Source: Micrococcales bacterium (GTDB lineage: Bacteria > Actinomycetota > Actinomycetes > Actinomycetales > Cellulomonadaceae). Taken from it: 64,000 nucleotides of DNA. The notes under the pieces are model-generated. The model saw nothing but the letters and a program-made list of their open reading frames with translations. It was not told where the DNA came from and did no database searches. The stretch lies in assembly GCA_009777345.1 (NCBI GenBank), contig WRMB01000010.1, positions 1 to 64,000 on the forward strand, given 5' to 3'. A program made the position numbers and the translations under genes. Shown piece by piece: positions 56,718 through 60,258 of this stretch. Every line of letters begins with the position of its first letter. Position 1 is the first letter of the stretch.

Positions 56718-56783
56718 CTGAAACCGATGTGCCAGGATCGGTACACAAAACGTGTCCGGACGGCCCAGGGCGGGTGTTAGCCT
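56718..56783 (+). promoter_or_regulatory. Candidate operator plus -10 (site A): CTGAAACCGATGTGCCAGGATCGGTACACAAA ... TAGCCT
   Basis: aligns without gaps to sites at 57464 and 60193; -10-like TAGCCT starts exactly 60 nt after CTG. Confidence 0.7.
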
Positions 56784-56860
56784 CGTTGCCGTGAGGATCT
56801 CGAGTCCTCTAACAGAGGTCCGAGACGAGTTCGGACCGCCGTCTCGCTAGGAGTAGGTCT

Positions 56861-57301
56861 GTGAAGTCAATCCGTACCACCACCATCGCGCTCGTCGGCG
56901 CTGCTCTCCTCACACTCGGTGCGCTGACCGGGTGCTCGAGCGACGATTCTGACGACAAGGGCAAGGAGACCAACGCCTCGGACGAGTCGAAGGGCGACTC
57001 CAAGTCGGACGACTCCAAGTCGGACTCCAAGGACTCGACGGACGCCGCGAACTTCGACTTCGACTGCGAAGAGTACACGACTGTGTTCAGCTCGGTCGAC
57101 GTGCCGACCAACATGACCGACATGGACGCCGTGGCTGACTACTACGACGCCCTGGCCGCCGAGGCGTCGGGTGGGCTGAAGAACGTGCTCAAGACCATGG
57201 CCGACTACACCCGGGACCCGATGGACACCGCCGCTGCGGAGCGCGCCACCGAGGCTTCGCAGGCATGGGCCGACGCTGTCATGGAGTGCGCTGGCATGTA
57301 G
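56861..57301 (+). CDS. Small lipoprotein with Ser/Asp/Lys-rich linker
   Basis: lipobox LGALTGC; linker SSDDSDDKGKETNASDESKGDSKSDDSKSDSKDS; GTG start. Confidence 0.85.
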   Translation: MKSIRTTTIALVGAALLTLGALTGCSSDDSDDKGKETNASDESKGDSKSDDSKSDSKDSTDAANFDFDCEEYTTVFSSVDVPTNMTDMDAVADYYDALAAEASGGLKNVLKTMADYTRDPMDTAAAERATEASQAWADAVMECAGM

Positions 57302-57345
57302 CCGACGCAGGGTCGTGACCAGGGCAGGTCAGGTCACACCATCTT

Positions 57346-57395
57346 CCCGGCCGGAGGTTGTGGTTCTCGGGGTCCACAACCTCCGGCCGGGTTTT
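57346..57395 (+). terminator. Rho-independent terminator after lipoprotein gene
   Basis: 18-bp arms CCCGGCCGGAGGTTGTGG / CCACAACCTCCGGCCGGG followed by TTTT. Confidence 0.9.
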
Positions 57396-57463
57396 GTCTT
57401 TGGGTGCGCCAACCCTCGACCCCCACAAGAGTGAGAGTTCTCGGAAGGTGATAATGTTTCAGC

Positions 57464-57529
57464 CTGAGACACGTATGCCAGAACTGTTACACGAAGCGGG
57501 CTCTGGCAGAGGTCCGGGTGCGGTAGAAT
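57464..57529 (+). promoter_or_regulatory. Candidate operator plus -10 (site C): CTGAGACACGTATGCCAGAACTGTTACACGAA ... TAGAAT
   Basis: aligned with sites A and B; TAGAAT 57524-57529, 60 nt after CTG. Confidence 0.7.
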
Positions 57530-57536
57530 TGTCGCC

Positions 57537-57884
57537 ATGATGACCCAGAACACATCCGCAATCACCTCGGACGAGCGGACCCGGGGAATGATCGTCCATC
57601 TGGTCGCCGCCGTCTTCACGATCCTCGGGGCACTCGTCGTCTGGCTCTTGCACAAGGACAAGCCTGGTTTCGCCCGGGAGCAGGCGACCGGTGCTCTCAA
57701 CTTCCAGATCGGGATCTTCGCGGTCGAGGTGGTGGCGTGGATCCTCGGCTTCATCATCTGGCCGCTCGGCCTCCTGGTCGGTCTGGCCTGGCTGGTCGGC
57801 GTCGTCTTCGCGGTGCTCGGTGCGGTGACCGTGAACAAGGGAGAGTCGTACCGCTACCCCTTTGGCCTGCGCATCGTGACATGA
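57537..57884 (+). CDS. DUF4870 (Tic20-like) small membrane protein
   Basis: MIVHLVAAVFTILGALVVWLLHKDKPGFAREQATGALNFQIGIFAVEVVAWILGF. Confidence 0.85.
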   Translation: MMTQNTSAITSDERTRGMIVHLVAAVFTILGALVVWLLHKDKPGFAREQATGALNFQIGIFAVEVVAWILGFIIWPLGLLVGLAWLVGVVFAVLGAVTVNKGESYRYPFGLRIVT

Positions 57885-58008
57885 GACCGCTCCTGGGCGC
57901 CGCGACCGGACGATTCGCGGCGTTCGGAGGAACATCCGGCCGGTTCGCGGGATCAGACCCCCGTGAGACGAGGACCGGCCTGCGGGCATGGCACGAGGCG
58001 GTGGGGGC

Positions 58009-58044
58009 CCTGGAGCTCCGGGTCTACGGACCCGGAGCTCCAGG
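58009..58044. other. Strong hairpin between DUF4870 and FHA genes (possible terminator/attenuator)
   Basis: CCTGGAGCTCCGGGTC-TACG-GACCCGGAGCTCCAGG, 16-bp perfect arms, no T tract. Confidence 0.8.
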
Positions 58045-58136
58045 TGCGATTGTGGTGCGACTGGTGAGCAGACCGAGACTGGCGAACAGACCGAGCGGGA
58101 CGGGCCGTGGCCCGACCAGCAGAACAGAAGCCCGAT

Positions 58137-59591
58137 ATGCCTGACATGATCATGACCCTGGCGTCGCTCCTCGTGGCGGTGGCACTGTACATGTGGGTCG
58201 GTGCGACGCTGAGCACGCTGTTCCGTGCGCTCGGCGGCGCGCGGTGGAAGGCGTGGGTCCCGCTGGTCAGCCAGGTCGAGATGTTCAGGCTCGCCAAGAG
58301 GCCGGGCTGGCACATCGTCCTGCTCGTCGTCCCGCTCTACGGTCTGGTCGTCTACTACCAGGTGCTGCGAGAGCTGACCAAGCTGTTCGACCGTCCGACG
58401 AGACTGGCGCTGATCGGGGTCGTCCTCCTGCCGGTCTGGGCCGCCGCGGTGGCTGGTGGCCCCGCGTCTGGCGGGACAGCGGTGGGGGTCGAGTCCATCT
58501 TCGCTCTCTCCCCCCAGCCCGAGCCCCCGGTGGCGGGAGGCCACCCGGTTCCGCCGAGCCCGGCACCGGTCGGCGCGGCACCTGACCCGCAGGTCGGGCA
58601 GTACGCCTGTCCCGTGACGGTGTACCCGGAGCCGGTCATGCCGCTGGTGGTCCCGGCTCACCCGGTCGCTCCAGCGGCTCAGGCTGTGGTTCCAGCCCAG
58701 CCAGCGGCCGACCAGCCGATGGCGCCTGCGCCGGTGGTGGTTCAGCCGATGGTGGTCCAGCCGATGGTGCCTGCGCCGGTGGTCCAGCCGCCGGTCGTCG
58801 CGCCGTCGGTGCCGGTCGCGCAGCCGTCCGCCGCCCAGGCGGTGCCGCCCCTGGAGTTCCCGCCCGTCGTGCAGGACTCGCCCTGGTCCACCCCGGGTAC
58901 CCCGGCCCCTGCCGTGGTGCCGGACCAGGCGGTCGTGCCGCAGCCGGTGCTGCCGACGCCGGTCGTGCCTGCGGTGGTCATGGCGGAGCCGGTCAGCGTG
59001 CCGCGGTCGGGAACGGCGCAGCCTGCGGTCGTGCCGCAGCCGGTGCCGTCGCCGGTCGTGCCTGTGGTCATGGCAGAGCCGGTCAGCGTGCCGCGGTCGG
59101 CAACGGTGCAGCCTGCGGTCGTCCCGCCGCCAGGCCCGCTGTCGGCGGCGACCACGCCGTCCCGCGGGACCGGGCGACCGGCGCTCATGCCGGTGCCGTC
59201 GGATTTCGAGGTGTCAGACCACACCGTGGTCATCAACCGGGCGTCGCCGCGTCCGTGGTCGCTGGTCCTGGAGGACGGCCGGAGTTTCGACCTGTGGGCG
59301 TCGTCCGTGGTGGTCGGCCGGGAGCCGACGGCCACCGACGACGGGGTGCAGATGCTGGCGATCCCTGACGACACGCGCACGATCTCCAAGATGCACGCCC
59401 GTTTCGACCTGGTCGACGGTGTGTGGCAGGTCACCGACCTGGGCTCTACCAACGGCATCGTCGTCACCGGCACCGACGGGCGGGCCTTCTCGGTCCGGTC
59501 GGGCAGGACGAGCGTGGTCGGTACCCAGCTGGTGCTGGGCTCGGTGATGATGCGGCTGGTCTCCAGAGAGTCGTTGGCAAGGAGCGCATGA
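58137..59591 (+). CDS. Membrane protein (DUF5684-like N-terminus), Pro/Val-rich linker, C-terminal FHA domain
   Basis: N-term KAWVPLVSQVEMFRLAKRPGWHIVLLVVPLYGLVVYYQVLRELTKLF; C-term VVVGREPT...ISKMHARFDLVDGVWQVTDLGSTNGIVV; alternative start 58107. Confidence 0.85.
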   Translation: MPDMIMTLASLLVAVALYMWVGATLSTLFRALGGARWKAWVPLVSQVEMFRLAKRPGWHIVLLVVPLYGLVVYYQVLRELTKLFDRPTRLALIGVVLLPVWAAAVAGGPASGGTAVGVESIFALSPQPEPPVAGGHPVPPSPAPVGAAPDPQVGQYACPVTVYPEPVMPLVVPAHPVAPAAQAVVPAQPAADQPMAPAPVVVQPMVVQPMVPAPVVQPPVVAPSVPVAQPSAAQAVPPLEFPPVVQDSPWSTPGTPAPAVVPDQAVVPQPVLPTPVVPAVVMAEPVSVPRSGTAQPAVVPQPVPSPVVPVVMAEPVSVPRSATVQPAVVPPPGPLSAATTPSRGTGRPALMPVPSDFEVSDHTVVINRASPRPWSLVLEDGRSFDLWASSVVVGREPTATDDGVQMLAIPDDTRTISKMHARFDLVDGVWQVTDLGSTNGIVVTGTDGRAFSVRSGRTSVVGTQLVLGSVMMRLVSRESLARSA

Positions 59592-60157
59592 TGGACATCC
59601 GACTGGTCGTGGACGACCGGACCACGGCGATGGTGGACGGAGTCGTACCGCGCCGCGAGTTCGTCTTTGCGGACTGCCTCGTGGTAGGTGGCCGGGTCTA
59701 CGAGTACGGCTGGGACGCAGAACGCCTCGCCGTCGGTGCCGAGCTGTCCGTCGGTTCCGGAGAATACGGGCTGGCCGGGTTCGACCAGCTGGACCGGCTG
59801 GACGTCGGACCGATCGCCTATTCTTGCGGGTCGACGCTGGCCCGTGGTTCGTCGGGGTATTTCATGAAGACCGTCGGCGACCAGCTGGTCTGGCTGCTGG
59901 TCTGCACCGACTCGGAGGCGTTCACCGCCGTTCGCCGTCGGCGCGACGGCGTCGAGTTCGTCGCGCAGCTCGGTGAGCGCTGGGTGCTGCCCGCCGAGGA
60001 CGTCACCGCCGTGTTCGTCGAGCCGCCGGGCCAGCTCGCGGACCTCTCGTGGCCCGCGTCCACGGTCGGGACAGCCTCCTCGGTCCCGGCTCCGCGCCGG
60101 TCGGCCCGGCCGACGGCGGCACGGACGGGCCGTACCGGCTCGGCCGTGGTGTGGTGA
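59588..60157 (+). CDS. Hypothetical protein coupled to FHA gene
   Basis: 189 aa from ATG 59588 overlapping the FHA stop; no family recognised. Confidence 0.6.
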   Translation: MMDIRLVVDDRTTAMVDGVVPRREFVFADCLVVGGRVYEYGWDAERLAVGAELSVGSGEYGLAGFDQLDRLDVGPIAYSCGSTLARGSSGYFMKTVGDQLVWLLVCTDSEAFTAVRRRRDGVEFVAQLGERWVLPAEDVTAVFVEPPGQLADLSWPASTVGTASSVPAPRRSARPTAARTGRTGSAVVW

Positions 60158-60192
60158 TCGGCACGGGAGCGGGCCGCGACACGTGTCTTGCC

Positions 60193-60258
60193 CTGAAACA
60201 TGTGTGACAGGATCCGTACACCAGATGTGCACCTGGAGCGGTCCGCGTCCGGTACGCT
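60193..60258 (+). promoter_or_regulatory. Candidate operator plus -10 (site B): CTGAAACATGTGTGACAGGATCCGTACACCAG ... TACGCT
   Basis: aligned with sites A and C; TACGCT 60253-60258, 60 nt after CTG. Confidence 0.7.

What the first reader, a model, noticed from the sequence alone, without database searches (positions are those of the whole stretch)
56718..60258. Undescribed 32-bp dyad-like motif at fixed distance from the -10 of three envelope genes
Three intergenic sites align with no gaps. A (56718) CTGAAACCGATGTGCCAGGATCGGTACACAAA; B (60193) CTGAAACATGTGTGACAGGATCCGTACACCAG; C (57464) CTGAGACACGTATGCCAGAACTGTTACACGAA. Approximate consensus CTGAAACAYGTGTGCCAGGATCSGTACACNA; the core TGTGnCnGGATCCGnnCACA is an imperfect dyad. 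In each case a TANNNT -10-like hexamer (TAGCCT, TACGCT, TAGAAT) starts exactly 60 nt after the first C, and I see no good -35. The genes are a lipoprotein, a DUF4870 protein and a membrane-FHA protein. The sequence between motif and -10 is poorly conserved, so simple recent duplication does not explain the match. Inference: activator-dependent regulon for envelope functions.
Basis: partly seen in the sequence, partly recalled or inferred. Interest (0 to 1): 0.82.

Follow-up and report, generated by a model that had tools for sequence, protein, structure and literature searches.

The report
Lineage-specific operator-array promoter class
Three promoters in this window belong to a set of roughly 25-35 promoters in the same bacterium that share an undescribed regulatory DNA element at a fixed distance from the transcription start, so an unknown activator probably switches on a large, lineage-specific gene set.

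Summary
A genome scan with patterns lacking the -10 finds 21 sites in the 3.32-Mb genome and none with the reversed pattern. 16 of 21 have TANNNT exactly 60 nt after the first C; 9 have ATG/GTG 13 nt beyond that hexamer's start, the spacing of leaderless transcripts. 26 of 27 core matches are intergenic. There is no -35. It occurs in 3 of 82 congeners, in no other genome sampled from the order, and GTDB-wide only in two termite-gut MAGs. Most likely it is the operator of an unknown dimeric activator. 'Envelope regulon' is only partly supported: many targets are kinases, HEAT/TPR giants and DUF proteins. Three candidate regulators were tested: a ParB paralogue is excluded; the neighbouring OmpR-type regulator and an XRE-cupin protein are disfavoured. 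The regulator is unidentified.

The parts
56690..56706 (+). Site A, array unit 1: TGTTTCGGTTCGAAACA palindrome
   Evidence: 17-bp palindrome, 19 bp upstream of unit 2
56709..56725 (+). Site A, array unit 2: TTTTTCAGACTGAAACC palindrome
56728..56750 (+). Site A, promoter-proximal box TGTGCCAGGATCGGTACACAAAA
   Evidence: most conserved part of 30 aligned sites
56778..56783 (+). Site A, -10 element TAGCCT (TG-extended: TGTTAGCCT)
   Evidence: offset 61 from first C, as in 16 of 21 unbiased sites
56791..56850 (+). Site A, putative leaderless 19-codon leader ORF (GTG...TAG) upstream of the lipoprotein gene
   Evidence: GTG at offset 74; GTG at the same offset in G004 and G084
56861..57301 (+). Target gene of site A: lipoprotein
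   Evidence: signal sequence with lipobox-like LTGCSS
57455..57471 (+). Site C, array unit: TGTTTCAGCCTGAGACA palindrome
57474..57496 (+). Site C, promoter-proximal box TATGCCAGAACTGTTACACGAAG (CTGTTACAC variant)
57524..57529 (+). Site C, -10 element TAGAAT
57537..57884 (+). Target gene of site C: DUF4870 membrane protein, predicted leaderless (ATG 13 nt after start of -10)
   Evidence: Pfam PF09685 E=1.6e-23
60184..60200 (+). Site B, array unit: TGTCTTGCCCTGAAACA imperfect palindrome
60203..60225 (+). Site B, promoter-proximal box TGTGACAGGATCCGTACACCAGA
60253..60258 (+). Site B, -10 element TACGCT
60266..60367 (+). Site B, putative leaderless 33-codon leader ORF whose stop overlaps the start of the FHA gene (TGATG)
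   Evidence: read from sequence
60364..62070 (+). Target gene of site B: DUF5684 membrane segment plus C-terminal FHA domain
   Evidence: Pfam PF18936, PF00498
54807..55517 (+). OmpR-type response regulator next to site A; considered and disfavoured as the regulator
   Evidence: PF00072 + PF00486;

Best explanation
The element is the operator of an as yet unidentified dimeric DNA-binding regulator that activates a lineage-specific set of promoters. Dimers bind the 19-bp palindromes (one to three back to back) and the promoter-proximal box, whose centre lies near -53 relative to the inferred start, just upstream of where a -35 would be. From there they recruit or stabilise RNA polymerase on an often TG-extended -10 that has no -35. 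Transcription starts about 7 nt after the -10, often on the A/G of a start codon (leaderless mRNA or a short leaderless leader ORF). Shown: the element, its arrangement, fixed spacing, intergenic placement, lack of a -35, start-codon spacing, copy number and restriction to one lineage. Inferred: that a protein binds it, that it is a dimer, and that the effect is activation.
For: 21 own-genome sites found without the -10: 16 with TANNNT at one offset, 9 with a start codon at one offset, no -35. 26 of 27 core hits intergenic. Sequence-only profile R1 finds 36 matches in the own genome, 19 in G004 and 22 in G084 at E<=0.01, best E 1e-17 to 5e-21; these counts include array-only and opposite-strand matches. 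Exact 19-bp periodicity with up to three near-perfect palindromes, e.g. L117, L120, L106. Consensus of 30 sites: two information blocks and a -10, almost nothing in the 34-57 spacer. Largely unrelated downstream genes.
Against: No expression or binding data. The regulator was not found, and no regulator gene carries a clear array in its own promoter. About 17 loci have palindromes without a clear proximal box and -10; there the same protein might repress. The proximal box is only weakly symmetrical, so two different proteins could be involved.
Confidence: 0.72

Rival explanations
1. The arrays are repressor operators; the fixed distance reflects a nucleoprotein complex that blocks RNA polymerase at an activator-independent extended -10 promoter.
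For: Back-to-back palindromes resemble cooperative repressor operators; about 17 loci carry arrays without the proximal box; TG extension at 8 of 21 sites.
Against: A repressor does not need one exact spacing upstream of -40, and the spacing is fixed in 16 of 21 unbiased sites; the -35 is worse than random, so the promoters look weak on their own.
Confidence: 0.15
2. The regulator is the OmpR-type response regulator at 54807-55517 with its kinase at 55514-56545 (a refinement of the best explanation, not exclusive of it).
For: Response regulator, histidine kinase and array-lipoprotein are syntenic in all three motif-bearing species (window, L118, L124), and a 75% paralogue sits beside an array-like site and a lipoprotein at C55 (L075). 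OmpR-type proteins can act from several tandem dimer sites upstream of -40 (own knowledge).
Against: Orthologues at 58-67% identity exist in 11 congeners without the motif, with no array near those read; the recognition helix is almost unchanged, RAVDQRV against RAVDHRV. OmpR-type sites are usually direct repeats, not perfect palindromes (own knowledge). Paralogues at C4 and G004 C12 have no array nearby.
Confidence: 0.15
3. The regulator is the XRE-cupin protein at G000 C31:33601-34113 (likewise a refinement).
For: Among 82 congeners it is present at 68-99% identity only in the three motif-bearing species; next hits are 29-31%. Cro/CI-type HTH proteins use 8-1-8 palindromes (own knowledge).
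Against: Orthologues of 70-75% identity are common in Streptomyces, Kineococcus and others with the same SKAMLSKIENAQTSCSLTTL helix region, yet a GTDB-wide scan finds the motif only in two MAGs of this lineage. Its own upstream region carries a different repeat (GGTGGTC...CCTATCGA..GGTGGC) and no array.
Confidence: 0.06
4. The sites are relics of duplicated or mobile DNA rather than regulatory elements.
For: Some targets are paralogues (kinases, DUF7824 family, lipoproteins), so part of the spread came with gene duplication.
Against: The spacer between box and -10 is not conserved; targets are mostly unrelated; 26 of 27 core hits intergenic and at fixed distance from a -10; no hits in IMG/VR or, for the A-C region, in plasmids.
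Confidence: 0.04

Closest known systems
Activator-dependent promoters with tandem regulator dimers upstream of -40 (e.g. OmpR at ompF/ompC; own knowledge)
   Same: Several adjacent dimer sites upstream of a poor or absent -35 at fixed distance from the -10.
   Different: Units are near-perfect 19-bp palindromes at 19-bp period with a distinct proximal box; regulator unknown.
parS, the ParB site TGTTTCACGTGAAACA (own knowledge)
   Same: Half-site TGTTTCA(G/C).
   Different: One-base spacer, G instead of C at the eighth position, tandem at promoters, some 30 loci; no lineage-specific ParB paralogue.
Cro/CI (XRE)-type operators, 8-1-8 palindromes (own knowledge)
   Same: Same symmetry and length class.
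   Different: Contiguous 19-bp period; no XRE protein convincingly linked.
CRP/GlxR sites TGTGA-N6-TCACA (own knowledge)
   Same: TGTG...CAC outer dyad of the proximal box.
   Different: Inner GATC and the GTG-N4-GATC-N4-CAC spacing do not fit TGTGA-N6-TCACA.

Membership tests
Activator-dependent, -35-less promoter class | Conserved upstream site at fixed distance from the -10 | tested here: met
   16 of 21 at offset 61, 2 at 62
Activator-dependent, -35-less promoter class | No usable -35 | tested here: met
   best TTGACA match 3 of 6 at 3 sites, otherwise 1-2; worse than shuffled
Activator-dependent, -35-less promoter class | Transcription depends on a bound protein | not testable with these tools
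   needs reporter and binding assays
Leaderless transcripts | Start codon at the predicted start site | tested here: met
   ATG/GTG at offset 74 in 9 of 21, background 4%
ParB/parS-like system | TGTTTCACGTGAAACA with no spacer | tested here: not met
   TGTTTCAGnCTGAAACA, 19-bp arrays
ParB/parS-like system | Lineage-specific ParB-family regulator | tested here: not met
   second HTH_ParB hit is a weak partial match to a protein I read as DUF1016-type
OmpR-type regulator site | Direct repeats at about 10-11 bp spacing | tested here: inconclusive
   array units are inverted, not direct; the proximal box has a weak CA(G/C)GA repeat at 11 bp (consensus)
OmpR-type regulator site | Motif co-occurs with the regulator | tested here: not met
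   orthologues in 11 motif-less congeners
XRE-cupin operator | Motif present wherever the regulator is | tested here: not met

The most novel reading that the evidence does not exclude
A previously undescribed global activator arose or was acquired in one gut-associated Cellulomonas-like lineage and captured some 30-40 promoters by gain of a tandem 19-bp palindromic operator, placing kinase-FHA signalling, chaperone-like, HEAT/TPR and secreted proteins under one switch.
Probability: 0.5. Interest if true: 0.65.

Novelty: new member of a known kind. Interest (0 to 1): 0.52.

Why it matters
It gives a precisely definable example of a young regulon: dozens of promoters with one operator grammar in three related species and none in their congeners, so the gain of sites can be followed. 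It also places many proteins of unknown function (DUF4132, DUF4259, DUF4261, DUF4870, DUF6891, DUF7824, AIM24, SPFH, FHA membrane proteins) under one common control, which makes a shared role testable.

Tried and rejected
ParB paralogue as regulator: the parS-like half-site suggested it, but only the ordinary ParB is present and the second hit is spurious. XRE-cupin protein: perfect co-occurrence in the genus, but orthologues with the same helix live without the motif elsewhere and its own promoter has another repeat. OmpR-type regulator: disfavoured. Weak profile hits in five other congeners were read as DNA; most look like coding DNA (the same transporter gene in several) and none has the array. 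Viral origin: no hits in IMG/VR with three patterns. Anti-phage theme: PADLOC gives only kinase-domain (PD-T4-6-like) and generic weak hits. Text search for the palindrome in 5.39 million papers: none.

Full report
WHAT IS THERE. The pattern with 3 mismatches occurs only three times in the window and not at all in 100 shuffles.

GENOME TEST. The same pattern finds 11 sites in the 3.32-Mb genome and a refined core finds 19; the reversed control finds none. Both patterns leave out the -10. Of the 21 distinct own-genome sites thus found, 16 have TANNNT at offset 61 and 2 at offset 62; at other offsets the rate is 0.27% (P about 1e-36). Nine have ATG or GTG at offset 74, 13 nt after the start of the -10, against a 4% background (P about 7e-8). 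This is the spacing expected of leaderless mRNAs and independently supports the -10 assignment. The best -35 match is poorer than in shuffled spacers. TG at the extended -10 position occurs in 8 of 21. Of 27 core matches over 510 kb of own-genome stretches, 26 are intergenic where 14.6% of bases are (genes called by a simple codon-usage script). Those stretches were fetched because they held sites, so site density is biased, but the intergenic share is not.

ANATOMY. A consensus of 30 sites shows three blocks: a palindrome TGTTTCAGnCTGAAACA at -8 to 8, a box RTGTGTCAGGATCnGTRCACGAAA at 10-33, and the -10 at 61-66, with almost no information in 34-57. Many sites have a second palindrome 19 bp further up; array-only loci show up to three units at exactly 19 bp, for instance L117, L120 and L106. 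The proximal box has an outer dyad GTG-N4-GATC-N4-CAC and a second form, TGnCAGAACTGTnACAC, seen at site C and in L123, with similar sequences in L118 and L124. Some promoters (C75 twice, C48/C76) have the box without a clear array. If the start is at offset 74, the box centre is near -53 and the palindrome centres near -74 and -93.

DISTRIBUTION. A sequence-only profile finds 36, 19 and 22 matches in G000, G004 and G084 and no convincing site in the other 79 congeners. The counts include array-only and opposite-strand matches; I estimate about 27 full promoters in G000. Three mismatches to the pattern find nothing in the sampled order outside G000. A scan of 85,488 species genomes hits only contigs of two MAGs, Lab288P4bin104 and Lab288P3bin128; Lab288 is Labiotermes labralis, a soil-feeding higher termite (PMC7024585). 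That the window's own genome is also from a gut is inference. No hits in IMG/VR.

TARGETS. First genes downstream include lipoproteins, DUF4870, DUF5684-FHA membrane proteins, Ser/Thr kinases, DUF4132/HEAT and TPR proteins, Hsp90- and Hsp70-like proteins, AIM24, SPFH, DUF4259, DUF4261, DUF6891, EF-Tu domain-2 proteins, giant Ig-repeat secreted proteins and a DUF7824 family with many paralogues. The theme is not the envelope alone; signalling and large proteins of unknown role are prominent.

REGULATOR. Three candidates were tested. ParB: the half-site resembles parS, but no extra ParB exists. The OmpR-type regulator at 54807-55517: linked in synteny to site A in all three species, but its orthologues in 11 congeners lack the motif while keeping nearly the same recognition helix. 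An XRE-cupin protein: in the genus present only in the three motif species, yet common elsewhere in actinobacteria with an identical helix region and no motif, and with a different repeat at its own gene. The regulator remains unknown; most HTH families were not searched.

MECHANISM. The fixed distance, missing -35, partly TG-extended -10 and upstream placement are best explained by an activator binding as dimers; repression is the main rival. Binding, dimerisation and activation are inferred.

VERDICT. Real, undescribed as far as I could search, and larger than claimed: a new regulon of a familiar kind with an unidentified regulator.

Noticed in passing
window 56791-56850 and 60266-60367: Short leaderless leader ORFs between the -10 and the main genes at sites A and B; the one at B overlaps the FHA gene start (TGATG). 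The GTG at A is at the same offset in G004 and G084.
   Followed up: partly
L106 6243-6285 and 11852-11894, L107 6463-6507, L116, L117, L119, L120, L121, L122, L125: Array-only loci: palindromes at 19-bp period without a clear proximal box or -10, near secreted Ig-repeat proteins, a kinase, DUF2314, DUF4272 and Hsp90-like genes; mode of action may differ.
   Followed up: partly
L060, L066, L069, L115, L162: Expanded family of 800-1150-aa proteins (DUF7824, 'FxELGW...ALAGLRSG'), some with an N-terminal stretch resembling the EF-Ts UBA domain; several lie directly behind array promoters.
   Followed up: partly
L312, L313, L314 upstream of the XRE-cupin gene: A separate conserved repeat (GGTGGTC...CCTATCGA..GGTGGC), possibly that regulator's own operator.
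   Followed up: no
L075, L118, L124, L195, L198-L209: Lipoprotein - response regulator - histidine kinase modules, several paralogues per genome and conserved in part of the genus, possibly lipoprotein-sensing two-component systems.
   Followed up: partly
window 46645-47748: Small genes that look like toxin-antitoxin pairs (antitoxin-like and PIN-like proteins), read from translations only.
   Followed up: no
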